Both the position numbers and the translations under genes were made by a program. The notes beneath the pieces were generated by a model. The model was not told where the DNA came from. It saw nothing but the letters and a program-made list of their open reading frames with translations, and searched no databases. A DNA stretch of 64,000 nt from an uncultured Carboxylicivirga sp. (GTDB lineage Bacteria > Bacteroidota > Bacteroidia > Bacteroidales > Marinilabiliaceae), in assembly GCF_963668385.1 (NCBI RefSeq), contig NZ_OY764327.1:3816501-3880500 (forward strand). Direction: 5' to 3'. Positions within the stretch are counted from its first letter, which is position 1; the number at the start of each line of letters is the position of its first letter. Positions 33,896-56,737 of the stretch are shown piece by piece.

Positions 33896-34122
33896 ATCAT
33901 TAAAGCAAAACATCTAACGGTGCCTGTATCAATAAATAAAATTAGAACTATTTTTAAAGAATTTTTATAGATACTGTAAGTAGGTAGGATTTTCAATGTT
34001 GACTTATTCTACTTAAATAGGCAAGCAACAGAATACAAATACTTCTGTACGCAATTACATAGTTATTTATTGAAAAGGGTATTTATTTGTACCAGACAAA
34101 TGAAAATATACACAATATAGAT

Positions 34123-35559
34123 ATGCAAAAATTAAATAGCGAAACATTAAATCGTGAAGAGTATCCCGTTAAAATTTTACAATTCGGGGAGGGTAATTTT
34201 TTAAGAGCTTTTGTTGATTGGATGATCAATAAAGCAAACAAAGAAATTGGTTTTAACAGAGGTGTGGCCATTGTTCAACCTTTAGAAAAAGGTTTGGTTC
34301 CAATGTTGAAAGATCAGGATTGTTTGTATCATGTGAAGTTGGAAGGAATGAAAGACGGTAAGCCAATTACACAAACTGAGGTGATTGATTCTGTTCAGGA
34401 TGCCTTAAACCCATATAGCGAGTATGAAAAGTATCAACAGTATTTCTTAAGTTCTGATTTGGAACTAATTGTTTCCAATACTACCGAGGCAGGTATTTCG
34501 CGTGTGGATAATGAAGATATCTATGCGAAGCCTCCAAAATCATTTCCTGGCAAAATTTGCCAATTGTTATACCAACGTTTCTCTCATTTCGATGGAGCTG
34601 CCGATAAAGGTCTTACTTTCTTCTGTTGTGAGTTAATTGAGAAAAATGCTGATACACTTAAGGAAATTGTATTGGAATTGGCCGAGCAAAACAATCTGGG
34701 TGATGCATTTATTAGCTGGTTGAATAATAGTTGTAATTTCTGTAGTACCCTGGTTGATCGTATTGTTACTGGTTTCCCTAAAGATAACATCAAAGAAATT
34801 CAGGCTGATTTAGGTTACGAAGATAATTTGGTTGTTGTGGGTGAGTATTTTCACTTGTGGGCTATTGAGGCATCACAAGAGGTTCGTGACAAATTTCCAT
34901 TTGATAAAGCCGGATTAAATGTGGTTTGGTTAGATGATATGACGCAATTCCGCGATAAGAAAGTTCGTATTCTAAATGGATCGCATAGTGCTTTGGTGCC
35001 AGTTGGGTTGTTAAGTGGATATCAAACGGTAATGGAAGCTTTTAATGATGAAACAATTTCTGCTTTTATCCAAAATATGGTCAGCGAAGAGGTAAGCCCT
35101 AATATTGCCGGCGAAAAAGAAGCCTTAAAGCAATTTGCCGACGAAATTCTCGAACGTTTTTATAATCCTTACATCAAACATTATCTGAAAGATATTTCGT
35201 TAAACTCTATCTCGAAATGGGTAACGCGCGATTATCCTTCGTTAGAAGATTCGTTTAAACGTACTGGTAAATTGCCAACTCGTTTAACTGTATCAATGGC
35301 GGCATTGGTTACTTTGTATAAAGGAGAATACAATGGTTTAACATTTACTATTACCGACACACCAGAATATGTTGAGTTTATTCAAAACGAATGGAATAGC
35401 TCAAAAAGTGTTGACGAAAAAGTAGCAGTTATCTTATCAAATAAAGAAGTGTGGGGAGTTGATTTTACTACTATCGATGGATTTATTGTTGAAGTGGCCA
35501 AATACGTAAATGCCATTTTAACCGATGGTATTAAAAAGATACTCGAAAAAGTAGCATAA
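34123..35559 (+). CDS. uxaB: Tagaturonate reductase (altronate oxidoreductase)
   Basis: Encodes 478 residues from ATG 34123; a TTG 12 codons up is less likely. Rossmann start VKILQFGEGNFLRAFVDWMI and the family signature KVRILNGSHSALVPVG place it in the long-chain mannitol dehydrogenase family, UxaB branch. Reaction: NADH-dependent reduction of D-tagaturonate to D-altronate, step two of galacturonate breakdown after UxaC. It is followed by altronate dehydratase with a 4-bp gap, so the two form a unit. It is placed among extracellular pectinases and away from the other uronate genes. Confidence 0.93.
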   Translation: MQKLNSETLNREEYPVKILQFGEGNFLRAFVDWMINKANKEIGFNRGVAIVQPLEKGLVPMLKDQDCLYHVKLEGMKDGKPITQTEVIDSVQDALNPYSEYEKYQQYFLSSDLELIVSNTTEAGISRVDNEDIYAKPPKSFPGKICQLLYQRFSHFDGAADKGLTFFCCELIEKNADTLKEIVLELAEQNNLGDAFISWLNNSCNFCSTLVDRIVTGFPKDNIKEIQADLGYEDNLVVVGEYFHLWAIEASQEVRDKFPFDKAGLNVVWLDDMTQFRDKKVRILNGSHSALVPVGLLSGYQTVMEAFNDETISAFIQNMVSEEVSPNIAGEKEALKQFADEILERFYNPYIKHYLKDISLNSISKWVTRDYPSLEDSFKRTGKLPTRLTVSMAALVTLYKGEYNGLTFTITDTPEYVEFIQNEWNSSKSVDEKVAVILSNKEVWGVDFTTIDGFIVEVAKYVNAILTDGIKKILEKVA

Positions 35560-35563
35560 TTAT

Positions 35564-37051
35564 ATGAAGAATTGCATTAAAATACATCCTAACGACAGTG
35601 TTGTGGTGGCTTTAGAAGCCATAAGTAAAGGAGATAAGGTATTTGTCGACGGGAACGAAATAGTGGTGAACAGCGATGTGCCACAAGGTCATAAAATTGC
35701 CATAAAACCAATTGAAAAAGGCGAGCATATTATTAAGTATGCCGCCTCAATTGGAATTGCTCAGGCTAATATTGAAGTTGGAGATCATATTCATGTTCAA
35801 AACTTGCGAACAGGTTTAGGCGATAACCTTGCTTATTGCTATAACCCCAATGGCCATGCAATTGAAATACCTAATGAAGGACTTACTTTCGATGGTTATT
35901 TAAGAGCTAACGGCGAAGTAGGTATCCGCAATGAACTGTGGATTGTTCCTACGGTTGGTTGTGTGAACGGACAGGCGCGTTTAATTGCCAACCAACTAAA
36001 ACAAGAAGCCGATATTGCTCACATCGATGATGTCGTGGTTTTGGGGCATCAATATGGTTGTTCGCAATTGGGCGACGATCATAGCAATACCCAAAGAGCA
36101 TTGTCGCAATTAATTAAGCATCCAAATGCCGGTGGTGTTTTGGTGTTGGGTTTGGGTTGCGAGAACAATCAGATATCATCATTAAAAGAAGTGATGGGTA
36201 CTTACGACGATAGTCGTATTAAGTTTTTGGTAGCTCAGGAAGTAGAAGATGAGGTGGAAGTAGGTCTTGAAATTGCCAAAGGGCTGGCTGAGCAGATGAA
36301 ACAAGACAAACGTACTGCTCAATCGGTAGCCAAGCTTCGTATTGGTTTAAAATGTGGTGGAAGCGATGGATTCTCGGGTATTACTGCTAACCCTCTGTTA
36401 GGGCGTTTCTCCGATTGGTTGGTAGGTCAGGGAGGAACAACGGTGTTAACCGAAGTACCCGAAATGTTTGGAGCCGAAACTTTGTTGATGGATCGTGCCG
36501 ATTCTGAAGGTGTTTTTGATAAAACTGTTTCGATGATTAACGGATTTAAAGACTATTTCCGTCGTCACGATCAACCTATTTACGAAAATCCATCGCCCGG
36601 AAACAAGAATGGTGGGATCACCACGCTTGAAGAAAAATCGTTGGGTTGTGTACAAAAAGGAGGAACAGCTATCGTTACTGATGTCTTGGATTATGCCGAC
36701 CCTATTTTAAAAGATGGGTTAAACCTGTTGTGGTCGCCGGGTAACGATTTAGTTGCAGCATCGGCTCTAGGTTTTTCGGGCTGTCAAATGGTACTGTTTA
36801 CCACTGGTAGAGGTACGCCATTCGGTAGTTTTATTCCAACTGTTAAGGTGGCAACCAACACTCAGTTATTTGAGCATAAATCGAAATGGATGGATTTTAA
36901 CGCCGGTGTTTTGGTCGAAGGGGCTGATATGGATGAGGTTCGTAAAGAGTTTACATCTTACCTGATTGAAGTAGCCAGTGGAAAGCGCTTACATCACGAA
37001 ATAACCGACTTTAAAGAGATAGCTATTTTTAAAAGTGGTGTTACTTTGTAG
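35564..37051 (+). CDS. uxaA: Altronate dehydratase
   Basis: Encodes 495 residues. An N-terminal SAF domain (to ~90) is followed by the UxaA body: NELWIVPTVGCVNGQA, HQYGCSQLGDDHSNTQRAL, VLGLGCENNQ, LKCGGSDGFSGITANPLLG. The conserved Cys and His positions fit the iron-requiring altronate dehydratase. Reaction: D-altronate to 2-keto-3-deoxygluconate (KDG). It is the second gene of the uxaB-uxaA unit. KDG then goes to KdgK and Eda, encoded ~13-15 kb downstream on the other strand. Confidence 0.94.
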   Translation: MKNCIKIHPNDSVVVALEAISKGDKVFVDGNEIVVNSDVPQGHKIAIKPIEKGEHIIKYAASIGIAQANIEVGDHIHVQNLRTGLGDNLAYCYNPNGHAIEIPNEGLTFDGYLRANGEVGIRNELWIVPTVGCVNGQARLIANQLKQEADIAHIDDVVVLGHQYGCSQLGDDHSNTQRALSQLIKHPNAGGVLVLGLGCENNQISSLKEVMGTYDDSRIKFLVAQEVEDEVEVGLEIAKGLAEQMKQDKRTAQSVAKLRIGLKCGGSDGFSGITANPLLGRFSDWLVGQGGTTVLTEVPEMFGAETLLMDRADSEGVFDKTVSMINGFKDYFRRHDQPIYENPSPGNKNGGITTLEEKSLGCVQKGGTAIVTDVLDYADPILKDGLNLLWSPGNDLVAASALGFSGCQMVLFTTGRGTPFGSFIPTVKVATNTQLFEHKSKWMDFNAGVLVEGADMDEVRKEFTSYLIEVASGKRLHHEITDFKEIAIFKSGVTL

Positions 37052-40099: not shown

Positions 40100-41353
40100 C
40101 TAATCAAGACTGAATAGTCGTTTTAAATGACGCTCGTAAATATTTTCATACACACAATTACCTATGATATCAGCATGTTTCTTTAATAATGGTAAATATA
40201 TATCCGACTGAAGGGCGGCAAGTTTATAAGCCACATGTACCAACTGGCGCATATTAGGGTTATACTGGGGATGATCAGGTATATGCCTGATGGCATTGGC
40301 CATATCGTCTGCACTCCAATCAGCTATGGCTTCGACAGATGGTAGTTCGTTGGTTTTAATATCAATTACATCGGCATAAGGCGCGCATAATTCATCTATT
40401 TTATCCAATGCCTTACCATATAAATCTTTAATAAATTGCAAAGCATCGCCTCCAGCCATTGAAAGTCCAATTACCTCTTCAAGCCAGGTAGTACCTGCTG
40501 TTTTAATATGTATACCTTTATCCAGTTTATTAATGATATTACCAATATGAGGATAAATTGAAAATTTATCTGATCCGGAGTGTACACTCAGTTTAATCTC
40601 GGCAGGTAATCCAAATTCCTGAACACATTGATCCAAAACATGTAAATCCTGTTCAAATTCTTTGGCAAAATCAAGGGGATTACCGGTGTAATCAACTCCT
40701 TTATTAAAACGACCTGAGAATTTAGGAGCAATGGTTTGAACCGGAATTTTTTGGCCGGCCAGCATCTTTAAAATAAAGAATAATTCGATGGGTGTTTGTG
40801 GTTTGGGTACTTCGTCCATCGACACTTCGGTAATGAAATTACCTTTGCCTTTAACTCCTTCTATAATTTGATATATTTCGCCTGCCTTTTGTGCAGCAAA
40901 TAAATACTGATCGGCTACTTTTTTAATATCATCGCGGCTAACATCAAAAGGTTCATCAATGCCTTTAATGCTTACTTTGCCAATATAGTGACTAGAGCTG
41001 TTTAAAAAGGCTTCAATATCGACCTCCGTAGCAGGTTTTCCAATGTATCCGGCCACATCAATGGTAAAAAAATCTGATGATGGTAAAAAGCGATCAACGG
41101 TATCGAGGTTGATATGATCGGCATCTACAAAGTATAATTCATCCCATCCTTTAGCTTTAACGGCAGCATCTGCTTCGATACGCACATCGTCGGGATGAGT
41201 ACCAATGGTAGTGTGTTCGCGGTTCGATTTGTTCCAAACAGGGCAAATGTCGTAGCCCAGTTCACGAACTTTCATAATTGCTTTTAGTTGTGCTTCGCCC
41301 TGATGACCAAAACGGTCGCCCACGCCGAAGGAATACTTCGATAATTTTTTCAT
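40100..41353 (-). CDS. uxaE: Tagaturonate epimerase family protein (UxaE type)
   Basis: Encodes 417 residues. The opening SFGVGDRFGHQGEAQLKAIM and ELYFVDADHINLDTVDRFLP match the tagaturonate/fructuronate epimerase family first described in Thermotoga (UxaE), with conserved acidic and His residues (DADHI, LSVHSGSDKFSIYPHIG) for a metal. Predicted reaction: C4 epimerisation of D-tagaturonate to D-fructuronate, which links the galacturonate branch to the mannonate branch (SDR reductase and UxuA upstream in the same operon). It is the last gene before the terminator. The 94-bp gap before it holds a candidate operator, so it may be transcribed separately. Confidence 0.8.
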   Translation of the reverse strand: MKKLSKYSFGVGDRFGHQGEAQLKAIMKVRELGYDICPVWNKSNREHTTIGTHPDDVRIEADAAVKAKGWDELYFVDADHINLDTVDRFLPSSDFFTIDVAGYIGKPATEVDIEAFLNSSSHYIGKVSIKGIDEPFDVSRDDIKKVADQYLFAAQKAGEIYQIIEGVKGKGNFITEVSMDEVPKPQTPIELFFILKMLAGQKIPVQTIAPKFSGRFNKGVDYTGNPLDFAKEFEQDLHVLDQCVQEFGLPAEIKLSVHSGSDKFSIYPHIGNIINKLDKGIHIKTAGTTWLEEVIGLSMAGGDALQFIKDLYGKALDKIDELCAPYADVIDIKTNELPSVEAIADWSADDMANAIRHIPDHPQYNPNMRQLVHVAYKLAALQSDIYLPLLKKHADIIGNCVYENIYERHLKRLFSLD

Positions 41354-41447: not shown

Positions 41448-42500
41448 CTAAAATAATCCCATGTTTTCAGCATTGATAATATCAATGGGCTGAAATTCCT
41501 TTTTCTCAGGAATGGTGTTAAATGTCAGATAATCAAACAGCTTTTTAAAAGCTTTTTCAGCTTGTTCAACGGGGCGTTGACCAATTAAAAACTGGATAAC
41601 ACGTCGTTGAAGGTAGGTTACGTTTTTACCAAATAGTTCGTATCCTACTAAAAATACATCTCTTTTCCCTTTTTGATGTAAATATTCAGCTACAGCATAT
41701 GTTCTGGAACTGGATACTAAAATGGCGCCAATGTTGTTGTTGGTGTCAAAAATTGGATCCAACATATTTTGTACAACATCGGGTTGTGCCGTTGGTATTT
41801 CAATGCTAATTTTCTTGCCCATATTCCGTCCTGCATCCATAAAATAGCTAAGAAATCCCTGGTTTCTACTATTCAGGTGTTGGGTGTTTTCCAAATCTTT
41901 GGCCGTGTTTACAATTAAAATATCCTTATCACGACCAATACCCATATCAATCAAGCTGGCGGCTACCCTTCCGCTCTGAAAAGCATCTTCGCCTAAAAAA
42001 GTAAGGCAATTGGTATTATTAATAAATGTGTCGATAAACACATAAGGAATCGATTTTTCATCTAATTTTTGACAAAAGTTATCTGATTCCTTTTTCATGA
42101 TGGGGGCAAATATTACCCCTTGGGCACCCCATTCAAGAATGTCTTTTGTTTTGTCTTCAAAGTCGGATGTGTTATACATCTCGTAGCGATAAAACTGTGT
42201 AATGGCCCTGAAAGGCTGAACCGATTCAACCCCTTTTTGAATACCCTGTGGGTGCATATCCCAAAACAGGTTATCGCCATAACTTTGAGGAATTAATACG
42301 GCAATGCGATAGGCAGTGGGCGACTTTAAAGCCTGAGCAGCAATGTTGGGTTGGTAATTAAGGTCTTTGGCTATTTGTAAAATGCGCTGTTTAGTTTCGG
42401 CTTTTACTTCGCCACGGTTGTGTAATACACGATCGACCGTACCAATTGAAACACCTGCTTTTTCTGCAATATCTTTAATTCGGATTTTTTTGCCGTACAT
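41448..42500 (-). CDS. LacI-family transcriptional regulator of the uronate operon
   Basis: Encodes 350 residues. N-terminal helix-turn-helix IRIKDIAEKAGVSIGTVDRV then hinge LNYQPNIAAQALKS; the rest is a periplasmic-binding-protein-like effector domain of the ribose type (AYRIAVLIPQSYGDNLFWDM, GAILVSSSRTYAVAEYLHQ). The VDRVLHNRGEV variant of the second helix is common in Bacteroidota LacI proteins. It lies inside the uronate operon between the hexuronate transporter and uxaE. A hairpin separates it from the transporter. Effector probably a uronate or KDG; inference. Confidence 0.9.
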   Translation of the reverse strand: MYGKKIRIKDIAEKAGVSIGTVDRVLHNRGEVKAETKQRILQIAKDLNYQPNIAAQALKSPTAYRIAVLIPQSYGDNLFWDMHPQGIQKGVESVQPFRAITQFYRYEMYNTSDFEDKTKDILEWGAQGVIFAPIMKKESDNFCQKLDEKSIPYVFIDTFINNTNCLTFLGEDAFQSGRVAASLIDMGIGRDKDILIVNTAKDLENTQHLNSRNQGFLSYFMDAGRNMGKKISIEIPTAQPDVVQNMLDPIFDTNNNIGAILVSSSRTYAVAEYLHQKGKRDVFLVGYELFGKNVTYLQRRVIQFLIGQRPVEQAEKAFKKLFDYLTFNTIPEKKEFQPIDIINAENMGLF

Positions 42501-44050: not shown

Positions 44051-45505
44051 TTATACATTATAAGTCGTTGATGCGGTATCGCCTCCACGGCCTGTCCAGT
44101 TTGTATGGAAAAACTCGCCACGAGGTTTATCGATACGTTCGTATGTATGCGCTCCAAAATAGTCGCGCTGTGCTTGTAATAAGTTGGCAGGTAATCGATC
44201 ACAACGATAACCATCAAAATAATTCAAGGCAGTTGTTAATGTAGGAGCAGGGATTCCATTGGTTAAGGCTGTTGCAGCCACTCTTCTCCAACCGGCTTGA
44301 GCTTTTTCAACTTTTTCTTTAAAATAAGGATCTAATAATAGGTTTGGTAAATTATTATTCTTGTCATAAGCTTCTTTGATTTTACCTAAGAAAGCCGAAC
44401 GGATAATACATCCACCACGCCACATTAAAGCAATTCCTCCGTAATTTAATTCCCAATTGTACTCTTCAGCAGCGGCACGCATTAGTGCATACCCTTGTGC
44501 ATACGATACAATTTTAGATGCAAATAAAGCATCGCGTAAATCATCGATTAATTGTTTTTTATCACCAGTAAATGATGGGGTAGGGCCACTTAAAATTTTT
44601 GAAGCAGCTACACGCTCTTCTTTTACTGCAGATAAACAACGAGAGAATACAGCTTCGCCAATAAGTGTTAATGGAATACCCAAATCAAGAGCAGCCACTC
44701 CAGTCCATTTTCCGGTTCCTTTTTGTCCGGCTGTATCTAATATTTTATCAACCAAAGGTTCGCCATCCTCATCTTTAAAGGCAAGAATATCACGAGTAAT
44801 TTCAATCAGATAACTATCTAAATCACCGGTATTCCATTCTTTAAATACTTCGTGCATCTCGTCAGCAGACATACCTAACAAGTCTTTCATAATCTGGTAG
44901 GCTTCGGTGATTAATTGCATGTCGCCATACTCTATACCGTTGTGTACCATTTTTACAAAGTGACCTGCACCGTCTTCACCCACCCAGTCGCAACAAGGTG
45001 ATCCGTCTTCTACTTTGGCAGCAATTGATTGGAAAATTGGTTTTACCAATGGCCATGCTTCTTTTGATCCTCCAGGCATGATTGAAGGGCCTAATAAAGC
45101 ACCTTCTTCACCACCAGAAACTCCAGTTCCGATGTAAAGAATGCCTTTCTCCTGTAAATATTTAGTTCGTCGATTGGTGTCGGGGAAGTGCGTGTTACCT
45201 CCATCAATTAATACATCCCCTTTTTCGAGGTAAGGAAGAATTGATTCGATGGTAGCATCTACAGCTGGTCCGGCTTTAATCATTAACATGATTTTACGAG
45301 GACGTTCAATGGAAGCCACAAACTCTTCGAGACTATGAGCCCCTCTGATGTTTTTGTCTTTACCTCGATTAGCTAGAAAGTTGTCAACTTTCTCAACTGA
45401 GCGGTTAAATACGCTTACTGTAAAACCTTTGCTTTCCATGTTTAGAACAAGGTTTTCTCCCATCACTGCTAATCCAACTAATCCTACGTCTGATAAATTT
45501 TTCAT
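44051..45505 (-). CDS. gnd: 6-phosphogluconate dehydrogenase, decarboxylating
   Basis: Encodes 484 residues from ATG 45505 (the frame is open further up but starts the Rossmann fold here). Fingerprint [24 protein letters not shown]-site Arg in FNRS, the family signature [38 protein letters not shown] and the C-terminal [20 protein letters not shown] are all present. Reaction: 6-phosphogluconate + NADP to ribulose 5-phosphate + CO2 + NADPH. No glucose-6-phosphate dehydrogenase gene is next to it; its neighbours are a LarA-type enzyme and a PfkB kinase in the uronate operon. That odd setting suggests 6-phosphogluconate may come from another source (see findings). Confidence 0.95.
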
Positions 45506-45527
45506 TTTCTTGAAGGTTATTTTATTA

Positions 45528-46802
45528 CTATTCTTTAAATCGATCGGGATGAGCCCAAAGCCCCATTGCCGGATTGGAAATATAATAAATTTCTTCTCCA
45601 TCTGGCAGTGTATTGTAGCCATCAACCAAATTATCCGGATTGTAGCGAGCCATCATTTCATCTAATGGCGCATAACGGAAGTTGACAGATTCAATTTCGT
45701 CTTTGGATAAGTGACCTGGACAGTAGGTGATTGAAAATCTTCCTTCACTACTTCCATGCATCAGGTGAGCTGCGGCACCCAGGTTGTTTTTTAAATCATC
45801 ATTTTCTTCTATAGCTTTTAGTGTTGCTGGAGTTCCACAATAGCCATATTTGCGAATGAGTTGATCAATGGTTGCGTCTTCGCCAAACTCTTTTAATGCC
45901 GGAGCTAGTACTATTAACTCAGCATTATCGGCCAAAGCCATTCGAGTGCGGTAAACACTTTTATTACCCAACCAGGTACTTTTAAACTCAGAAGGATCGA
46001 GGTAAACAACTACTTTTTTCAATGGTTTTTCAACCATTTTAAAATTAACTTTTAACGAAAGAGCAGCTGCCAGTTCGAAGACTTCAACATCATCGCCAAC
46101 AAAGAGTCCGCGAGTGACTGATTTCCCACTTTCATCCTTTCCAATAACAGTAAGAACATATAAAATAGGCAAATGGTTTGTAAAATTATCGGATGCATAA
46201 TTTAATAGCTGACGCACAGGTGAATGTGTTCGGCCCATTATGCGTTCCATGCCATAGGCAGCACCTACAAAATGACTTTTATTGATACCTTCAGAACCTC
46301 CGGTACCCACAAAAATGTTTTTGTTGTAGTTGGCCATTCCAATTACTTCGTGTGGTACTACCTGACCAATAGAAAGAATAAGATCGTGGCCACCATCGAG
46401 TAATATTTTATTTACCTGTGCCGGCCATTTGTAGTTTACTATTCCTTCTGTTGCTTCCGAAACATATTCAGCAGGTATTTCACCCACCGTAACCACATCG
46501 TTTCTCCAGTCGTGCACTTTAAAAAGAGAGGAAGGCACTCCTTTAAACATATGGTTAATTTCATCGGCAGTCATAGCAGCATGTGTTCCCAAAGCAGGAA
46601 GCACATCTGTAAGTTTTTCTTTGAAATATTCGTAGGCGAAGGTGGTTAATTCACCTGCTTTCGAATGAAAACGCGTATAATCGGGGGGGATAGCCAAAAC
46701 TTTTTGTTTGGTACCTAATTTCTCAAGCGCTTCAAATAAAGCTAATTTTAAATCAGCATCACTTAAAACGGTTGTTTCCGATCCTTTTTGATAATAAATC
46801 AT
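45528..46802 (-). CDS. LarA-type nickel-dependent racemase/epimerase (DUF2088)
   Basis: Encodes 424 residues. LarA hallmarks are visible: PPDYTR (~40-44), LGTHAAMT (~71-78), [18 protein letters not shown] and INKSHFVG. By my count His151, Lys161 and His177 have the same spacing (10 and 16) as the catalytic His174, cofactor-bearing Lys184 and His200 of lactate racemase, so the nickel-pincer cofactor site looks intact. Family role: inversion at C2 of 2-hydroxy acids by hydride transfer. Lactate is an unlikely substrate here; the operon suggests an aldonate, such as mannonate/gluconate (C2 epimers) or altronate/allonate. LarB/C/E cofactor genes are not in the window. It sits between a PfkB kinase and gnd, with 21-22 bp gaps. 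Confidence 0.85.
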
Positions 46803-46823
46803 CGCTGTTGTTTTACTTGATAA

Positions 46824-47903
46824 TTATCGTTGAACACGCGCATTACCTTCCCAAATACTCCACACCATTGCTTCGTCGGCAGGTTGAGCATAGTCGGTAA
46901 GGAAAGTGGTTGCCAAAGCACCAGATGCCCATCCGAATTGCATGGCCTTTTCAGTTGGCATTTGTTTTAAAACACCGTATAACAATCCACCTACAAAACC
47001 ATCACCACCACCAATGCGATCCAGTACATTAATTTGGCGAGGTTCAATCACATGCCAATTGTCGCCTTCGAGCATAATTGCGCCCCAAAGGTGTTGATTG
47101 GTACTAATAACTTCGCGCAGGGTAGTAGCAAAAATGGATGCGCCCGGATAAGAGGCCTTAACGCGGGTAATCATTTCTTTAAAACTGTTGATTTTCGATT
47201 GTAAGCCTTCACCGCCTGCTTCGGGTCCTTCAATACCCAGGCAAAGTTGAAAGTCTTCTTCGTTACCAACTAATATGTCGGAAACAGAAGCAATCTCAGC
47301 AAAAACAGTACTTAATTCTTCTTCGCGATCTTTCCAAAACGTTGCTCGATAATTTAAATCGAAAGCGATTCGCGTTCCGTGTTTTTTTGCAGCACGAGCC
47401 AAATCCAGACAGAACTGGCTGGTTTCGGGAGATAAAGCTGCAATTAATCCCGATAGATGAACGATCTGAACCCCCTCTTCTCCGAATAGTTTTTCCAGAT
47501 CAAAATCATTTACACTTAATGTTCGGCCCACTTCACCAGCACGATCGTTCTGAACCCTTGGTCCACGCGATCCATAACCGCTATCTGCTATATTAAACTG
47601 ATGACGATATCCCCAAGGGCCTCCTTGAGGAACTTCCTGACCATCATAATCCATGTGTCGTCCCTTAAGATTGCTCTTAATGAATTCGGCAATGGGGCTT
47701 CCCTTAACAAACTTAGTAAGTACTTTAACTGGTAAACCAAGGTATGATGCAATACTGGCCACATTGGTTTCGGCACTGGTAGCATACATGGTAAACTGAT
47801 CGCTACTGTGTACGGGTTGACCATTGGGTGGAGTAATACGAACTCCCATGCTGGTAGGTACTACCAATGAGTATTTGCAGTTCTTTTTCAGGATGATTTT
47901 CAT
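46824..47903 (-). CDS. PfkB-family sugar kinase, second KdgK-like copy
   Basis: Encodes 359 residues. Ribokinase fold: AETNVASIASYLGL (substrate loop), IAFDLNYRATFWKD (typical of KDG-kinase relatives), ILVGNEEDFQL, and DRIGGGDGFVGGLLYG with the catalytic Asp in GGGD. It is clearly different from the canonical KDG kinase at 50950. The substrate could be KDG, or a related acid such as gluconate given the LarA-type and gnd genes right downstream; the sequence alone does not decide. A 28-bp perfect palindrome precedes it, after uxuA. Confidence 0.82.
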   Translation of the reverse strand: MKIILKKNCKYSLVVPTSMGVRITPPNGQPVHSSDQFTMYATSAETNVASIASYLGLPVKVLTKFVKGSPIAEFIKSNLKGRHMDYDGQEVPQGGPWGYRHQFNIADSGYGSRGPRVQNDRAGEVGRTLSVNDFDLEKLFGEEGVQIVHLSGLIAALSPETSQFCLDLARAAKKHGTRIAFDLNYRATFWKDREEELSTVFAEIASVSDILVGNEEDFQLCLGIEGPEAGGEGLQSKINSFKEMITRVKASYPGASIFATTLREVISTNQHLWGAIMLEGDNWHVIEPRQINVLDRIGGGDGFVGGLLYGVLKQMPTEKAMQFGWASGALATTFLTDYAQPADEAMVWSIWEGNARVQR

Positions 47904-47974: not shown

Positions 47975-49195
47975 CTATTTATAGATTACACCACTTTTTT
48001 CGATTCCCATTTCCAATCCTCTTAATTCAGCAAGCCCTCTTAATAGGCCAATGGCTGAATATCCTGGATTTGTTTTCTTTCTCAGATCATCGAGAATCGT
48101 ATGACCATGGTCGGCACGCATTGGAATAATTTCGTCTCTTCTGTTTAAAGCATGACGTTTCTTTTGCTCCTTTAATACGGCAACAAATACGCTATACATA
48201 TCAACATTTCCTCTCAAGTGACTAGCTTCGTGGAAACTTCCATTATCGTCACGTTGAGTGCTGCGTAAATGAAGAAAGTTAATTTTACTTCCAAGACGTT
48301 CGATCATTCCAGGTAAATCATTATCGGCACGTACGCCTAAAGATCCTGTACAGATGCATAATCCATTGTAAATCGAATCCACTACATTAACAATGTATTG
48401 TAAATCTGTTTCGCAACTAACTACACGAGGTAAACCAAACAACGGGATTGGTGGATCGTCGGGATGTATTGCTAAACGAACACCCGATTCGATAGCTACG
48501 GGTACAATTTGTTCCAGAAAATACTTTAGGTTCTCGCGATAATCATCAGCTGATATGTTGTCATATTCAGCTAATCGTTCTCTAAAATCTTCAATGGAAT
48601 AACCTTCTTGCCCACCAGGTAAGCCAGCAATGATATTGTGCTGTAGCATGTAACGTTGTTCGTCGCTCATGCTTTCGAACTTTTCGGTAGCCAGCTTTTT
48701 TATGTCATCACTGTATTCACCTTCAGCGCCTTTGCGCTTAAGTATAAATAAATCAAAAGCAACAAATTCAGCCATGTCAAAACATAAAGCCTGAGCTCCG
48801 TCTTCCATTTCCATTGTTAGGTTGGTACGTGTCCAGTCGACTACAGGCATCCAATTGTAAGTAACTACTTCAATTCCTGCTTTGCCAACGTTTCGAATGC
48901 TTTCCTTGTATTTTTCAATCCATTCGTCTTTTGTATCTTTCCCTTGTTTGATATCTTCATGAACAGGTATACTTTCGATAACAGACCAATTAAGTCCGCG
49001 TGGTTTGGGTGGAGTAACACTGTCGTCCCAATGAATCAACCTTTTTCTGGCTAAGATCATTTCTTCTGTCCATACTTCACCAATTGCAACTTCGTGTAGT
49101 GCTGTAACTATACCTGTTGCTCCAGCCTGTCTAATATCTGCCAATGATACCGGATCACCAGGTCCGTACCATCTCCATGTTTGTTCAACCCCCAT
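47975..49195 (-). CDS. uxuA: Mannonate dehydratase
   Basis: Encodes 406 residues. Opens EQTWRWYGPGDPVSLADIRQ, the hallmark of UxuA. Other blocks: TALHEVAIGEVW, TYNWMPVVDWTRT, RLAIHPDDPPIPLFGLPRV, CICTGSLGVRADNDL and IPMRADHGHTILDD carry the metal-binding His, Cys and Asp residues. Reaction: D-mannonate to KDG. The gene follows the SDR reductase with an 17-bp gap and precedes the palindrome and PfkB gene. With uxaE it completes a glucuronate-type branch. Confidence 0.96.
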   Translation of the reverse strand: MGVEQTWRWYGPGDPVSLADIRQAGATGIVTALHEVAIGEVWTEEMILARKRLIHWDDSVTPPKPRGLNWSVIESIPVHEDIKQGKDTKDEWIEKYKESIRNVGKAGIEVVTYNWMPVVDWTRTNLTMEMEDGAQALCFDMAEFVAFDLFILKRKGAEGEYSDDIKKLATEKFESMSDEQRYMLQHNIIAGLPGGQEGYSIEDFRERLAEYDNISADDYRENLKYFLEQIVPVAIESGVRLAIHPDDPPIPLFGLPRVVSCETDLQYIVNVVDSIYNGLCICTGSLGVRADNDLPGMIERLGSKINFLHLRSTQRDDNGSFHEASHLRGNVDMYSVFVAVLKEQKKRHALNRRDEIIPMRADHGHTILDDLRKKTNPGYSAIGLLRGLAELRGLEMGIEKSGVIYK

Positions 49196-50055: not shown

Positions 50056-50727
50056 TTACTTTTTAACTTCTTGGATATTAGCTATTAATTCTTTTGCTTT
50101 TTCAGCTAGAGCAGAATAGTTTTTAGCTTCCATAATATCCTTAGGGAATAGGTTAGATCCCATACCTACACACGTAACACCTGCATCAAACCATTTTTTT
50201 AGGTTTTCTTTTTCGGTTGTTACCCCTCCGGTAGGCATAATGTCGGTCCATGGCATTGGCGCTTTAACCGCTTTTACAAACGAAGGACCTCCAATTTCGG
50301 ATGCAGGAAATACTTTCACTACTTCTGCTCCTAACTCCTGAGCTTTGTTGATTTCTGAGATTGTTCCACATCCTGGCGACCACATAATTTTTCTGCGGTT
50401 ACAGATGCGTGCCATATTTTCGTTCAATAGAGGAGCAACAATAAAGTTAGCACCTGATTGAATGTATAATGCAGTAGTTGCTTCTTCAACAATTGAACCG
50501 GCACCTAGTATCATGCCTGGTAATTCTTTAAGAGCATACTTGTTTAATTCGCTGAATAATTCATGCGCAAAATCACCACGGTTAACAAATTCGAATACAC
50601 GAATTCCACCATCGTAACATGCTTTCAATACGTTTTTACAAACGTCAATGTCGGAATGAAAAAATACAGGTACTACGCCTGTTTCCTTCATTGCCATAAA
50701 TACCTCAATTCTGGAATATTTTGCCAT
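50056..50727 (-). CDS. eda: KDPG/KHG aldolase
   Basis: Encodes 223 residues from ATG 50727; the frame above runs through a hairpin. TIM-barrel aldolase of the Eda family: GVVPVFFHSDIDVCKNVLKA, EFVNRGD (Glu of the active site), LGAGSIVEEATTALYIQSGANFIVAP, Schiff-base Lys in VVKVFPASEIGG and MPTGGVTTEKENLKKWFDAG. Reaction: 2-keto-3-deoxy-6-phosphogluconate to pyruvate + glyceraldehyde 3-phosphate. It ends the pathway from all uronate branches. Confidence 0.94.
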   Translation of the reverse strand: MAKYSRIEVFMAMKETGVVPVFFHSDIDVCKNVLKACYDGGIRVFEFVNRGDFAHELFSELNKYALKELPGMILGAGSIVEEATTALYIQSGANFIVAPLLNENMARICNRRKIMWSPGCGTISEINKAQELGAEVVKVFPASEIGGPSFVKAVKAPMPWTDIMPTGGVTTEKENLKKWFDAGVTCVGMGSNLFPKDIMEAKNYSALAEKAKELIANIQEVKK

Positions 50728-50949: not shown

Positions 50950-51987
50950 TTATCGTGATACCCTACCTGAGGCGTCGCCACCCATTAATTTTTCTACTTC
51001 TTCTACAGTAACCTGATTGAAATCACCATGAATGGTATGTTTCAAACAAGATGCAGCTGTAGCAAAATTGATAGCGCTTTGATCATCTCCTTCGTAAGCA
51101 ATTAATCCGTAGATTAAACCACCCATAAATGAGTCACCACCACCTACACGATCTACAATGTGAGTGATTTGGTAAGTTGGTGCCTGGAAAAGGTTTTCAC
51201 CATCGTAGATTACACCCGACCAACTGTTATGGTTGGCACTTACCGATCCGCGAAGCGTAGTAATTACTTTTTTAACGCGTGGATATTGTTTCATTATTTG
51301 TTGCGATACACTGCGGTATGCTTCTGCTTCAACATGTCCGCCAGTAACGTCAACGCCTTCTGGTTTGATGCCTAATACCATTTCAGCATCTTCTTCGTTA
51401 CCCAAAACAATGTCGCAACCAGCCACTAATTCTGGCATTACTTCAGCTGCTGTTTTACCATATTTCCAAAGATTTTTGCGGTAGTTTAAGTCACAAGTAA
51501 CGGTAACGCCCATTTTGTTGGCAGTTTGAATAGCTTCTAAACAAACATCGGCAGCACCTTGCGAAATAGCAGGAGTAATTCCAGTCCAGTGGAAAAAGTC
51601 AGCATCTTTTAAGATCTCTTCCCAATTAAACATTCCTTTGCTTACTTCAGAAATGGCTGAGTTAGCACGGTCGTAAACAACCTTACTAGCACGAGCTACT
51701 GCTCCTGTTTCCAGGAAGTAAATACCTAAACGATCACCACCTTGAAGGATTTTATCGGTTTTTACACCATACTTTTGAAGTTCCATTTGACACGCTCTGC
51801 CAATATCATTTTTTGGCAAACGTGTTACAAATGATGAATCAATGCCATAGTTGGCTAATGATACAGCTACGTTTGCCTCGCCACCACCATAAGTAGCTTC
51901 AAATGATGTAGCTTGATTAAAACGCTCGTAACGGGGTGTAGCCAAGCGTAACATGATTTCTCCAAAAGAGACTACTTTCTTTGACAT
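50950..51987 (-). CDS. kdgK: 2-keto-3-deoxygluconate kinase
   Basis: Encodes 345 residues. PfkB fold with KdgK-type features: VVSFGEIMLRLATPRYERF, GGGEANVAVSLANYGID, CDLNYRKNLWKYGK, VLGNEEDAEMVLG, and DRVGGGDSFMGGLIYG with the catalytic Asp. Reaction: KDG + ATP to KDPG. It starts 4 bp before (downstream of) the uxaC stop, so it is translationally linked. It is the more canonical of the two kinases in this operon. Confidence 0.92.
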   Translation of the reverse strand: MSKKVVSFGEIMLRLATPRYERFNQATSFEATYGGGEANVAVSLANYGIDSSFVTRLPKNDIGRACQMELQKYGVKTDKILQGGDRLGIYFLETGAVARASKVVYDRANSAISEVSKGMFNWEEILKDADFFHWTGITPAISQGAADVCLEAIQTANKMGVTVTCDLNYRKNLWKYGKTAAEVMPELVAGCDIVLGNEEDAEMVLGIKPEGVDVTGGHVEAEAYRSVSQQIMKQYPRVKKVITTLRGSVSANHNSWSGVIYDGENLFQAPTYQITHIVDRVGGGDSFMGGLIYGLIAYEGDDQSAINFATAASCLKHTIHGDFNQVTVEEVEKLMGGDASGRVSR

Positions 51988-51991
51988 TTTA

Positions 51992-53395
51992 TTAAAAATT
52001 AAAGTATGATTTTGCGTTTTTATATGAAATTCCTTCTACCATTTGTTTTAAGATGGCATCGTCGTTAGGAATCATTCCTTTTTCAACTTCTTTACCTAAA
52101 TGATTACAAACAATTCGGCGGAAATACTCGTGACGAGGGTATGATAAAAAGCTACGGCTATCAGTTACCATTCCTACAAATCGGCTTAATAATCCTAGTG
52201 CCGAAAGGTCTAATAAGTGTTTTTCCATTCCTGTTTTCTGATCAAGAAACCACCATGCTGCACCGTACTGAACTTTACCAACAGTTGAACCATCGTTGAA
52301 GTTACCACACATGGTAACCATCATTTCGTTATCTGCCGGATTCAGGTTGTAAAGAATGGTTTTAGCTAATTGATCAGTTGTATCTAATAAATTAAGGAAT
52401 TGCGACATTTTAAGAGCATTCTGCGAGTTATTGATTGAATCCCAACCAGTATCAGCTCCCATAATATTGAATTTGCGGGTATTGTTATTACGCAATGCAC
52501 CCACGTGAAACTGTTGTGTCCAACCTCGTTTGTGGTTTAACTTAGCCAATTCGGCCATTACACAGCAGCGATATTTTTCTGTATCTTCTTCATCAATGGT
52601 GTTTCCGGCCATTAATTTTAAGAAAATTTTATTGACTTCTTCTTCGGTGTATTCAGCAAAGAAGAAACGATCTGGTCCACTATCTGAAGCACGGGCTCCT
52701 AATTCGTGGAAATATTCATGACGACGATCCAAGGCTTCAACTAAGTCTGTTAAAGATGAAATAGCAATATCTGCAACTTCGCCTAATTTTTCGACATATG
52801 CTTTGAATTGAACAGGATCTTCTGTTTTAATAACATTATCGGCTCGGTAAGTAGGTACAACTTTAATGTGATACCCTTCTTCTTTAATTTGTTTGTGAAA
52901 ACGAAGATCGTCGGCAGGATCATCAGTTGTTCCAACAACTTCCACCTTCATCATTTCTAACAACTTTCGGGTGCTATAGTCGGGCGACTGTAACATAGCT
53001 TTAGTTGATTCAAATATTTTATCGGCTGTAACCGGAGAAAGCAAATCTGTTACATTAAAATAACGTGCAAGTTCTAAATGAGTCCAGTGATAAAGTGGAT
53101 TGCCTGCAGTATAAGGAACTGTTTCGGCATATTTCATAAACTTTTCTTTATCCGAGGCCTGGCCATTACAATAGTGCTCGTCAATACCGTTAATACGCAT
53201 AGCACGCCATTTGTAATGATCACCTTCCAGCCAAATCTGACCTAAACTCTCGAACTGGCGGTCTTCGGCAATGAATTGTGGATTTAAATGGCAATGAAAA
53301 TCAATGATGGGTTGATTTTCTGAATACTCGTGGTATAATTTCTTTGAAGTCTCGGTTTCCAAAAGGAAATCCTTGTGAATGAATGGTTGTATCAT
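51992..53395 (-). CDS. uxaC: Uronate isomerase
   Basis: Encodes 467 residues, the usual length. Amidohydrolase fold: PIIDFHCHLNPQFIAEDRQF (metal His residues), VVGTTDDPADDL, QFHVGALRNNN, GADTGWDSI, ILYNLNPADNEMMVTMCGNF and SRSFLSYPRHEYFRRI. Reaction: D-galacturonate to D-tagaturonate and D-glucuronate to D-fructuronate. It is the first gene of the minus-strand uronate operon, divergent from the LacI gene at 53709. Confidence 0.96.
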   Translation of the reverse strand: MIQPFIHKDFLLETETSKKLYHEYSENQPIIDFHCHLNPQFIAEDRQFESLGQIWLEGDHYKWRAMRINGIDEHYCNGQASDKEKFMKYAETVPYTAGNPLYHWTHLELARYFNVTDLLSPVTADKIFESTKAMLQSPDYSTRKLLEMMKVEVVGTTDDPADDLRFHKQIKEEGYHIKVVPTYRADNVIKTEDPVQFKAYVEKLGEVADIAISSLTDLVEALDRRHEYFHELGARASDSGPDRFFFAEYTEEEVNKIFLKLMAGNTIDEEDTEKYRCCVMAELAKLNHKRGWTQQFHVGALRNNNTRKFNIMGADTGWDSINNSQNALKMSQFLNLLDTTDQLAKTILYNLNPADNEMMVTMCGNFNDGSTVGKVQYGAAWWFLDQKTGMEKHLLDLSALGLLSRFVGMVTDSRSFLSYPRHEYFRRIVCNHLGKEVEKGMIPNDDAILKQMVEGISYKNAKSYFNF

Positions 53396-54734: not shown

Positions 54735-55571
54735 ATGAGTTTAGAAGTTCGTTATGCAGTTCATCCTGAGGATGCAAAGAGTTACGGAACAGATCGTCTT
54801 CGTAAAGAGTTTTTAATTGAAAAAGTAATGGTGCCTGGCGAAATTAACTTGGTGTATTCGATGTATGATCGTTACATTGTTGGTGGTGCTGTACCTACTG
54901 ATAAACCTATTGAGTTAGGAACTTATGATGAGTTAAAAGCTGAGTTCTTTTTAAATCGTCGTGAAATGGGAATTATTAACGTAGGTGGTGCCGGAACAAT
55001 TACAGCTGATGGAGTTGAATATAAATTAGAACGCAAAGAGGCTTTATACCTGGGAAGTGGTATTAAAAAGGTAACATTTGCTTCTGTAGATGCATCTAAT
55101 CCTGCTCATTTATATATTAACTCAGCTCCTGCTCATAAATCATTACCATCAAAGCATGTTACCTTAAAAGATGCTAATGTATTGCAATTAGGTTCGCTAG
55201 AAACATCAAACGAACGTCAGATTAACCAGTTGTTAGTGAAAGAAGTTGTTGAGACTTGCCAATTACAAATGGGAATGACTGAGTTAAAACCAGGTAGTGT
55301 TTGGAATACTATGCCAGCTCACACTCACAGTCGTCGTATGGAAGCTTATTTCTATTTTGAAGTGCCAGATAATCAGGCTATATGTCACTTTATGGGGCAA
55401 CCTGATAATACGCGTCACATTTGGATGCAAAATGAGCAGGCTGTATTGTCTCCATCGTGGAGTATTCATAGTGCAGCAGGTACATCAAACTATATCTTTA
55501 TTTGGGGTATGGCTGGTGAAAACCTTGATTATGGTGATATGGATATTCGTCAACCAAATGAATTAAAATAA
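54735..55571 (+). CDS. kduI: 5-keto-4-deoxyuronate isomerase
   Basis: Encodes 278 residues. Opening [20 protein letters not shown], then [11 protein letters not shown] and the zinc-site block [16 protein letters not shown] (His, His, Glu) and [20 protein letters not shown] (His) are those of KduI. Reaction: 5-keto-4-deoxyuronate (DKI) to 2,5-diketo-3-deoxygluconate (DKII). It follows the regulator closely and precedes kdgF by 10 bp. Confidence 0.96.
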
Positions 55572-55936: not shown

Positions 55937-56737
55937 ATGATACAAGAACTTTTTGATTTATCAGGAAAAGTAGCCCTTGTTACCGGTGGTACTCATGGTA
56001 TTGGTATGGCTATTGGAAAAGTGTTAGGCAAAGCAGGTGCTAAAATTTGCGTAAACGATCTTTCAGAGGAGAAGCTTACAGAATGTAAAGCTGAATATGC
56101 AAAAGATGGTATTGATGTATATACTTTGGTTTTCAATGTAACTAAAGAAGACGAAGTGGATAAAGGTATCTCTCAGATCGAAAAAGAGGTTGGTCCGGTT
56201 GATATTTTGGTAAATAATGCTGGTATTATCAAGCGTATTCCAATTTTAGATATGCCTATTGCTGATTTTCAACAAGTAATTGATGTTGATTTAGTGGCTC
56301 CTTTAATTGTAGCTAAGCGCGTTGCACCTGGTATGATCGAAAGAAAAGCTGGTAAAATCATCAATATGTGTTCGATGATGAGTGTTTATGGTCGTAACTC
56401 TGTTTCGGCATATGCTGCTGCTAAAGGTGGTTTAAAATTATTAACTGCCAACATGTGTTGCGAGTGGGCTAAGTATGGCGTACAAATCAATGGTATTGGT
56501 CCGGGTTACATTGCTACTTCACAAACAGCTCCAATTCGCGAAAATGGTCACCCATTCAACGATTTGGTTATGACTCGTACACCTGCAGCTCGTTGGGGAG
56601 AACCAGAAGATGTAGGTAATGCAGCTTTGTTTTTAGCTTCAAAAGCAAGTGAATTTGTAAATGGTCATGTATTATATGTTGATGGTGGTATTTTAGCCAA
56701 CTTCGGATATGTTAAAGGCGAAAACGATCTTGACTAA
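55937..56737 (+). CDS. kduD: 2-keto-3-deoxygluconate dehydrogenase (KduD)
   Basis: Encodes 266 residues. SDR: VALVTGGTHGIGMAIGKVLG, VNNAGIIKR, INMCSMMSVYGR (Ser), YAAAKGG (Tyr/Lys), INGIGPGYIAT and FVNGHVLYVDGG. Reaction: reduction of DKII to KDG, which joins the KdgK-Eda route. It is the last cytosolic enzyme of the unsaturated branch in this operon. Only one base separates its stop from the next ATG. Confidence 0.94.
   Translation: MIQELFDLSGKVALVTGGTHGIGMAIGKVLGKAGAKICVNDLSEEKLTECKAEYAKDGIDVYTLVFNVTKEDEVDKGISQIEKEVGPVDILVNNAGIIKRIPILDMPIADFQQVIDVDLVAPLIVAKRVAPGMIERKAGKIINMCSMMSVYGRNSVSAYAAAKGGLKLLTANMCCEWAKYGVQINGIGPGYIATSQTAPIRENGHPFNDLVMTRTPAARWGEPEDVGNAALFLASKASEFVNGHVLYVDGGILANFGYVKGENDLD

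What the first reader, a model, noticed from the sequence alone, without database searches (positions are those of the whole stretch)
44051..47903. PfkB kinase, LarA-type epimerase and Gnd inside a uronate operon: possible mannonate-gluconate shunt
Three adjacent genes (gaps of 21-22 bp) encode a second PfkB kinase, a LarA-family nickel enzyme whose His151/Lys161/His177 keep the lactate-racemase spacing, and 6-phosphogluconate dehydrogenase. D-mannonate and D-gluconate are C2 epimers, and LarA-type enzymes invert C2 of 2-hydroxy acids; I recall a reported LarA relative acting on gluconate. The operon makes D-mannonate (UxaE plus the SDR reductase). A path mannonate to gluconate (LarA type), to 6-phosphogluconate (PfkB copy 2), to ribulose 5-phosphate (Gnd) would send uronate carbon to the pentose phosphate pathway with NADPH, beside KDG/KDPG. 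A canonical kdgK is already present at 50950, which frees the second kinase for another substrate. The substrate of each enzyme is inference.
Basis: partly seen in the sequence, partly recalled or inferred. Interest (0 to 1): 0.8.

Follow-up and report, generated by a model that had tools for sequence, protein, structure and literature searches.

The report
Nickel-epimerase uronate route to pentose phosphates
A Bacteroidota uronate operon carries a nickel-cofactor sugar-acid epimerase, its own sugar-acid kinase and 6-phosphogluconate dehydrogenase, which together probably send pectin-type sugars into the pentose phosphate pathway, a route proposed before in Thermotoga but here with different enzymes.

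Summary
On the minus strand, PfkB2 (46824-47903), a LarA homologue (45528-46802) and Gnd (44051-45505) sit 21-22 bp apart in a uronate operon. The LarA homologue passes NCBIfam NF052594 (LarA group 18, putative hexonate epimerase). It is the only Lar_N match in the genome, which also has larB-larC-larE-cbiM-cbiQ. The gnd is the only one found; zwf-pgl lie elsewhere. In 393 genomes of the order, PfkB2 goes with LarA18 (41 of 43). Of 48 good LarA18 genomes, 31 show no UxuA, so the usual mannonate dehydratase seems dispensable. PfkB2 keeps two KDG-kinase arginines but changes five other pocket positions in 62 of 62 sequences. In 10 of 99 loci an unrelated PFKA-family gene lies upstream of LarA18 instead. 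Best reading: mannonate -> gluconate -> 6-phosphogluconate -> ribulose 5-phosphate. The idea is not new: proposed for Thermotoga maritima (2012), GntE activity shown in 2020. New here are the group-18 enzyme's setting, the PfkB-type kinase and the UxuA-free genomes. Open: whether phosphorylation precedes epimerisation, as in L. suebicus extracts, and why 22 of 48 carriers lack full-length LarC. No enzyme activity was measured.

The parts
44051..45505 (-). gnd, NADP-type 6-phosphogluconate dehydrogenase; only copy found in the genome
   Evidence: TIGR00873 786 bits; single PF00393 match in the 6.27 Mb one-contig genome; start codon read
45528..46802 (-). LarA homologue, group 18 (LarA18): putative nickel-pincer D-mannonate/D-gluconate 2-epimerase
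   Evidence: NF052594 669 bits; only solved relative by sequence at E 0.001 is 4NAR = T. maritima GntE2 (identity of 4NAR from PMC7583248); catalytic and cofactor residues kept; only Lar_N match in the genome
46824..47903 (-). PfkB2, predicted hexonate (gluconate or mannonate) 6-kinase
   Evidence: PF00294; clade apart from KdgK, SH-aLRT support 100; five pocket positions changed in 62 of 62
47975..49195 (-). uxuA, mannonate dehydratase (optional member of the operon)
   Evidence: TIGR00695 516 bits; absent between SDR and PfkB2 in the closest relatives L020 and L021
49213..50052 (-). SDR, D-mannonate oxidoreductase type (fructuronate to mannonate)
   Evidence: NF006132 405 bits, cut-off 281
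50056..50727 (-). KDPG aldolase (eda); likely start at the ATG 18 codons into the TTG ORF
   Evidence: NF005499 362 bits, aligned from residue 19
50950..51987 (-). kdgK, canonical KDG kinase
   Evidence: best solved relative 2afb, 346 bits; KDG-pocket residues kept
51992..53395 (-). uxaC, uronate isomerase
   Evidence: PF02614 650 bits
42582..44033 (-). MFS transporter, probable uronate uptake
   Evidence: MFS_1 165 bits; TRAP transporter genes lie downstream of gnd in L033 instead (DctP and DctM)
41448..42500 (-). LacI-family regulator
   Evidence: LacI and Peripla_BP_4
40100..41353 (-). uxaE, tagaturonate epimerase
   Evidence: PF16257 182 bits; terminator-like stem-loop with T run at 40077-40054 just after it (where such matches are no more frequent than in shuffles)

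Best explanation
Galacturonate and glucuronate are turned into D-mannonate by UxaC, UxaE and the SDR reductase. LarA18, with a nickel-pincer nucleotide cofactor, moves a hydride off and back onto C2 of mannonate and so makes D-gluconate. PfkB2 phosphorylates gluconate at O6 to give 6-phosphogluconate. Gnd oxidises and decarboxylates it to ribulose 5-phosphate, CO2 and NADPH. Uronate carbon thus enters the pentose phosphate pathway with no net redox cost. In this genome UxuA-KdgK-Eda stays as a parallel branch, and KdgK-Eda can also serve KDG from unsaturated uronates (a KduI gene lies at 54735). In relatives without UxuA the LarA18 route is the main one. Shown by sequence: families, residues, single copies, gene neighbourhood and co-occurrence. 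Inferred: every substrate, the order of steps, and flux.
For: Epimerase: NF052594; residues D41, R44, H74, H151, K161, H177 and K281 in 100 of 100 sequences, all matched in GntE2; E152-V153 and W277, invariant in 48 of 48, fit the group 18-20 signature quoted in PMC7583248. Cofactor: larBCE with cbiMQ in the genome, and the only LarA found there is this one. Gnd pins the product: only D-mannonate is the C2 epimer of D-gluconate, and the same operon makes mannonate (chemistry, established). gnd is single copy; zwf-pgl lie elsewhere. Context: of 55 loci with at least 5 kb on both sides, SDR is on the same strand within 5 kb in 52, Gnd in 51, PfkB2 in 40 and a second PfkB type in 4; 45 of 55 have no UxuA there. 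Co-occurrence: LarA18 58, PfkB2 43, both 41 of 393 genomes. UxuA is not found in 31 of 48 good LarA18 genomes (E up to 1e-30) nor in 4 of 21 genomes (E up to 0.001). Of 15 loci without PfkB2 beside LarA18, 11 genomes hold an ortholog (70-81%) elsewhere; at least two of these 15 loci, L037 and L062, are simply cut by a contig end. Kinase pocket: Arg105 and Arg167 (T. thermophilus KdgK numbers) kept in 62 of 62; Gly33, Gly34, Tyr89, Tyr103 and Ile134 changed in 62 of 62, and kept in 26 or 27 of 27 KdgK (one row gapped; 4 further KdgK-like rows of low identity were left out) (that these residues touch KDG is recalled). A PFKA-family gene lies upstream of LarA18 on the same strand in 10 of 99 loci, between SDR and LarA18 in 7 of them, and none of the 10 loci holds PfkB2.
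Against: No enzyme was assayed. No group-18 LarA activity was found in the passages read. Published GntE KM values for D-mannonate are high (17 and 120 mM in PMC7583248; 9.4 and 3.8 mM for two more enzymes in PMC11770544), so free mannonate may not be the natural substrate. L. suebicus extracts did not turn mannonate into gluconate but phosphorylated it first (PMC6978723). 22 of 48 good LarA18 genomes have no full-length LarC, which does not fit a simple nickel-pincer dependence, although this genome has LarC. 17 of the 58 LarA18 genomes, 14 of the 48 good ones, have no PfkB2 at E 1e-60. UxuA is present here twice, so in this genome the route is not needed for mannonate use. UxuA-free genomes could use another dehydratase (ManD of the enolase superfamily was not searched).
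Confidence: 0.6

Rival explanations
1. Same route, other order: PfkB2 is a mannonate 6-kinase and LarA18 epimerises 6-phosphomannonate to 6-phosphogluconate. This is the activity pair seen in L. suebicus extracts, whose genes were not identified in that paper.
For: [quoted passage not shown] High KM of known GntE for free mannonate. LarA18 has invariant basic residues that GntE2 lacks (K175, R287, H349, R355), which could bind a phosphate.
Against: GntE1 and GntE2 do act on free mannonate. Whether the extra basic residues face the substrate is unknown (no structure could be predicted). Whether L. suebicus has a group-18 LarA was not tested.
Confidence: 0.28
2. The trio serves gluconate uptake in the other direction: gluconate is turned into mannonate and burnt through UxuA, KdgK and Eda.
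For: UxuA, KdgK and Eda are in this operon; LarA reactions are reversible (established).
Against: 31 of 48 good LarA18 genomes show no UxuA; a gluconate user with a kinase and Gnd needs no epimerase; the operon is built around UxaC, UxaE and SDR.
Confidence: 0.05
3. PfkB2 is a spare KDG kinase, Gnd merely sits in the operon for NADPH supply, and LarA18 makes some other hexonate; there is no connected route.
For: PfkB2's best solved relative is the KDG kinase 2afb (119 bits), and it keeps both carboxylate arginines.
Against: Five other KDG-pocket positions differ in 62 of 62; own clade with support 100; 41 of 43 PfkB2 genomes carry LarA18.
Confidence: 0.05

Closest known systems
Thermotoga maritima gnd-uxaR-uxaE-uxaD-gntE-gntK pectin/galacturonate operon (Rodionova 2012, not held; seen in passages of PMC3750489, PMC6978723, PMC7583248)
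   Same: A LarA-family gene, a kinase and gnd in a uronate operon with UxaE and a reductase; route mannonate to gluconate to pentose phosphates proposed
   Different: GntE2 is LarA group 20, only a 119-bit match to LarA18; GntK is of another kinase family (FGGY, recalled) where this operon has a PfkB; UxuA is not found in many genomes with the present version, whereas T. maritima has it (control)
GntE1/GntE2 D-gluconate 2-epimerases (LarAH19, LarAH20; PMC7583248, passages)
   Same: Catalytic and nickel-pincer residues, C2 inversion of a hexonate
   Different: Group 18 was only hypothesised to act on a hexonate; 22 of the invariant LarA18 residues listed differ in GntE2
Lactobacillus suebicus mannonate kinase / 6-phosphomannonate 2-epimerase pathway (PMC6978723, passages)
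   Same: Links the uronate isomerase route to 6-phosphogluconate and Gnd, redox neutral
   Different: Genes not identified there; order reversed with respect to the reading preferred here
PfkB-family KDG kinase (2afb, 1v19)
   Same: Fold family, both carboxylate-binding arginines, catalytic GxGD
   Different: Di-glycine to Thr-Ser, Tyr89 and Tyr103 to Asn, Ile134 to Leu

Membership tests
LarA group 18 (NF052594 nickel-dependent putative hexonate epimerase) | Whole-protein score over the curated cut-off | tested here: met
   669 bits against 500
LarA group 18 (NF052594 nickel-dependent putative hexonate epimerase) | Nickel-pincer and catalytic residues of LarA/GntE2 | tested here: met
   D41, R44, H74, H151, K161, H177, K281 in 100 of 100
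LarA group 18 (NF052594 nickel-dependent putative hexonate epimerase) | Cofactor synthesis genes larB, larC, larE in the genome | tested here: met
   one cluster with cbiM and cbiQ in this genome; full-length LarC missing from 22 of 48 good relatives with the enzyme
D-gluconate 2-epimerase (GntE) | Interconverts D-mannonate and D-gluconate | not testable with these tools
   no assay; inferred from operon and Gnd
KDG kinase (KdgK) | KDG pocket residues of T. thermophilus KdgK (residue list recalled) | tested here: not met
   of seven positions PfkB2 keeps R105 and R167 only; kdgK at 50950 keeps all seven
KDG kinase (KdgK) | Score over a curated KDG kinase cut-off | tested here: inconclusive
   best dedicated KDG kinase model 105 bits against 440; the canonical kdgK here also stays under it (231 against 440), so the test does not separate them
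6-phosphogluconate dehydrogenase, NADP type | TIGR00873 score over cut-off | tested here: met
   786.5 against 426.7 bits

The most novel reading that the evidence does not exclude
[quoted passage not shown] Some carriers load the nickel cofactor without the known LarC.
Probability: 0.22. Interest if true: 0.75.

Novelty: new variant of a known kind. Interest (0 to 1): 0.52.

Why it matters
If true, a nickel cofactor known mainly from lactate racemase carries a main flux of plant and algal uronic acids in many Bacteroidota, uronate use would depend on nickel supply, and genome-based models that look for UxuA would miss uronate users. It also gives a PfkB family with a predicted hexonate substrate, a gene set to test for the orphan L. 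suebicus activities, and a test bed (UxuA-free isolates) where the route can be proved by one deletion.

Tried and rejected
KDG as PfkB2's substrate: judged unlikely on pocket residues and phylogeny. Other hexonates (altronate, galactonate, gulonate) for LarA18: less likely, because Gnd needs 6-phosphogluconate. FGGY kinase as the gluconate kinase: four FGGY matches exist in the genome, one being a xylulokinase-like gene in the window (338 bits, under the cut-off of 380); the others were not identified, and the P-loop gluconokinase family was not searched. Rfam found nothing in the window. Promoter-like matches in the operon are below the shuffled mean (29 against 41.9) and are not used; the terminator-like count is at chance (11 against 10.3), so the stem-loop after uxaE is weak evidence.

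Rows dropped or chosen: the 80 loci are the best of 562 and lean to close relatives. The 19 loci L100-L118 were picked because the genome lacks full-length LarC, so counts over 99 loci are not a random sample; at least two genomes occur twice (L065/L109 and L082/L107, by matching contig lengths or coordinates). In one search three weak LarA matches (G038, G395, G417) were left out and 58 strong ones kept, two of them (G189, G297) fragments under the family cut-off. Five partial LarC matches were counted as not full length. In one search four KdgK-like rows of 34-36% identity were left out of the KdgK count, and eight PfkB rows of 32-35% identity were counted apart from the 62. Fisher values ignore relatedness.
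Full report
What is there. The window lies in a 6.27 Mb one-contig genome (100% complete) close to Carboxylicivirga (closest named hit C. linearis, 94% over LarA18; very near genomes may be left out of that list). The minus-strand run from 53395 to 40100 reads uxaC, kdgK, eda, SDR, uxuA, pfkB2, larA18, gnd, MFS, lacI, uxaE. The trio is exactly as described, with gaps of 21 and 22 nt.

Epimerase. The LarA homologue scores 669 bits in NF052594, the NCBIfam model named nickel-dependent putative hexonate epimerase, short name NPN_18_hexonate, which I take to be LarA group 18 of PMC7583248. Its only solved relative by sequence is 4NAR, which that paper (passages) identifies as T. maritima GntE2, shown to turn D-mannonate into D-gluconate; the paper only hypothesised that group 18 acts on a hexonate. 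An alignment of 100 LarA18 sequences keeps D41, R44, H74, H151, K161, H177 and K281 in all. The genome has one LarA match and one larBCE cluster with cbiM and cbiQ, so among LarA enzymes this gene is the sole known client of the cofactor there; a non-LarA client is not excluded.

Gnd. It is the only 6-phosphogluconate dehydrogenase gene found in the genome; zwf and pgl lie together elsewhere. The oxidative pentose phosphate branch of this organism therefore ends in a gene of the uronate operon. Because Gnd needs 6-phosphogluconate and the operon makes mannonate, a C2 epimerase and a kinase between them close the gap.

Kinase. PfkB2 and KdgK are both PfkB proteins, but PfkB2 forms a clade of its own with SH-aLRT support 100 on a long stem, apart from KdgK (91) (quick method, no bootstrap). 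At positions that I recall as contacting KDG in the T. thermophilus enzyme, PfkB2 keeps Arg105 and Arg167 and changes Gly33, Gly34, Tyr89, Tyr103 and Ile134 in 62 of 62 sequences (Ile134 only to Leu); KdgK keeps them in 26 or 27 of 27. The second PfkB type (8 rows, mostly Ignavibacteriota) changes Gly33 and Tyr89 only. I read this as a sugar-acid kinase whose substrate differs from KDG at C2 and C3, as gluconate and mannonate do.

Context. In 99 loci (80 best hits plus 19 chosen LarC-less ones) LarA18 and PfkB2 are neighbours in 63, LarA18 and Gnd in 38, SDR and PfkB2 are direct neighbours in 46, and UxuA lies between them in 11. In 55 loci with 5 kb on both sides, SDR, Gnd and PfkB2 lie on the same strand within 5 kb in 52, 51 and 40, and a second PfkB type in 4 more; 45 have no UxuA there. 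The closest relatives, L020 and L021, with 92-94% identical LarA18, lack UxuA at that place. The core is found in Bacteroidota, Ignavibacteriota and Calditrichota loci, and with parts missing in one Verrucomicrobiota and one Spirochaetaceae locus; one further Calditrichaceae locus (L073) has none of the partners. Where PfkB2 is not beside LarA18, 11 of 15 genomes have an ortholog elsewhere, in some cases only because the contig ends; the four others are L038, L044, L077 and L094.

Genome-wide. In 393 genomes of the order LarA18 occurs in 58 (strong matches), PfkB2 in 43, both in 41. UxuA occurs in 80, and in only 19 of the 58. Among 48 good LarA18 genomes (at least 90% complete, at most 5% contaminated) 31 show no UxuA and 14 no PfkB2. 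In a separate set of 21 genomes, own included, 4 show no UxuA: Marinilabilia rubra, Maribellus maritimus, Anaerophaga thermohalophila and Tangfeifania diversioriginum. The M. rubra locus reads uxaC-SDR-pfkB2-larA18-gnd-TRAP-lacI-uxaE with no uxuA, kdgK or eda recognised in 21 kb. This is the strongest argument that the trio is a full route and not a side shunt. Untested: ManD-type dehydratases. The altronate branch, present in this window (34087-37051), serves galacturonate and not glucuronate; whether the UxuA-free genomes have it was not searched.

Replacement of the kinase. In 10 of 99 loci a PFKA-family gene lies upstream of LarA18 on the same strand, in 7 of them between SDR and LarA18, and none of these loci holds PfkB2. 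The three run through NCBIfam (L038, L101, L113) score 366-378 bits in NF010675, a pyrophosphate-type model. Six aligned ones (L038, L101, L106, L108, L113, L118) show GGND and VPKTIDND motifs, which I read, from recall, as pyrophosphate-type. In 8 of the 10 a HAD protein lies between it and LarA18; the seven HAD sequences aligned keep the catalytic motifs. At least one such genome, that of L052, also has PfkB2 elsewhere. A second kinase family at the same place argues for a needed kinase.

Against the reading. Of the 48 good LarA18 genomes, 22 have no full-length LarC (PF01969); one of these (G178) has a short LarC1-like gene (76 bits, under its cut-off of 90) beside a LarB. The lack runs in families: for example all LarA18 genomes sampled in f23, f58, f108 and f119, while f8, f72 and f74 are mixed (my reading of the handles). 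12 of the 22 also lack UxuA, yet the 19 LarA18 sequences fetched from such loci keep all seven residues. Either nickel is put in by something unknown, or the cofactor is taken up, or LarA18 works otherwise there. LarB and LarE were not searched in those genomes. The known GntE enzymes have high KM for free mannonate, and L. suebicus extracts phosphorylate mannonate before epimerising (PMC6978723, passages). So the order of steps is open; I put 0.6 on gluconate as intermediate and 0.28 on 6-phosphomannonate.

What is known. The route as an idea belongs to Rodionova and colleagues 2012 (not held; read through passages of PMC6978723, PMC7583248 and PMC3750489). Searches of the held library for gluconate or mannonate 2-epimerase, mannonate kinase, hexuronate with gntE and Bacteroid, PfkB with gluconokinase, and larA with galacturonate listed no paper that is evidently on this gene set in Bacteroidota; some searches listed only 20 of 120, 15 of 47 and 15 of 93 papers. 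Two that seemed nearest were opened for passages: PMC5306329 (a Bacteroidetes pectin locus with uxuB, uxaABC, kdgK and eda; no gntE or kinase of this kind in the passages) and PMC7953866 (Catenovulum; mentions gntE only for Thermotoga). Most subscription papers are not held. I file it as a new variant of a known kind.

Noticed in passing
LarA18 genomes of the order (handles); loci L100-L118: 22 of 48 good genomes with this nickel epimerase have no full-length LarC, the known nickel-inserting enzyme, though the 19 LarA18 sequences fetched from such loci keep all seven cofactor and catalytic residues.
   Followed up: partly
L038:7724-9991, L101:5551-7901, L113:6077-8376 and others: A pyrophosphate-type PFKA protein, in 8 of 10 loci with a HAD phosphatase-like protein, stands where PfkB2 stands elsewhere.
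   Followed up: partly
L041:12466-13599, L108:7222-8358, L113:9624-10802; 40 of 99 loci: A PdxB-family (4-phosphoerythronate dehydrogenase) gene is in 40 of 99 loci, between LarA18 and gnd in 37 of them. 4-phosphoerythronate inhibits 6-phosphogluconate dehydrogenase (abstract start of PMC6449344), so it may protect Gnd.
   Followed up: partly
L041:11386-12411, L049:2028-3437; 28 and 10 of 99 loci: Gfo/Idh/MocA oxidoreductases of unknown substrate sit in the same loci.
   Followed up: no
window 34087-37051 (+): Tagaturonate reductase (607 bits) and an altronate/galactarate-type dehydratase: the altronate branch of galacturonate use lies just beside the mannonate operon.
   Followed up: partly
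window 54735-55571 and 55937-56737 (+): KduI (434 bits) and an SDR scored as gluconate 5-dehydrogenase (436 bits, cut-off 369) lie on the other strand next to the operon. If the SDR acts as KduD, this is a KDG source for KdgK and Eda.
   Followed up: partly
L119:8595-10152 (-): Natronoflexus has a LarB next to a short 269-residue LarC1-like protein with a His-rich stretch.
   Followed up: partly
G000:C1:45679-46860: A second full-length uxuA far from the operon in the window's genome.
   Followed up: no
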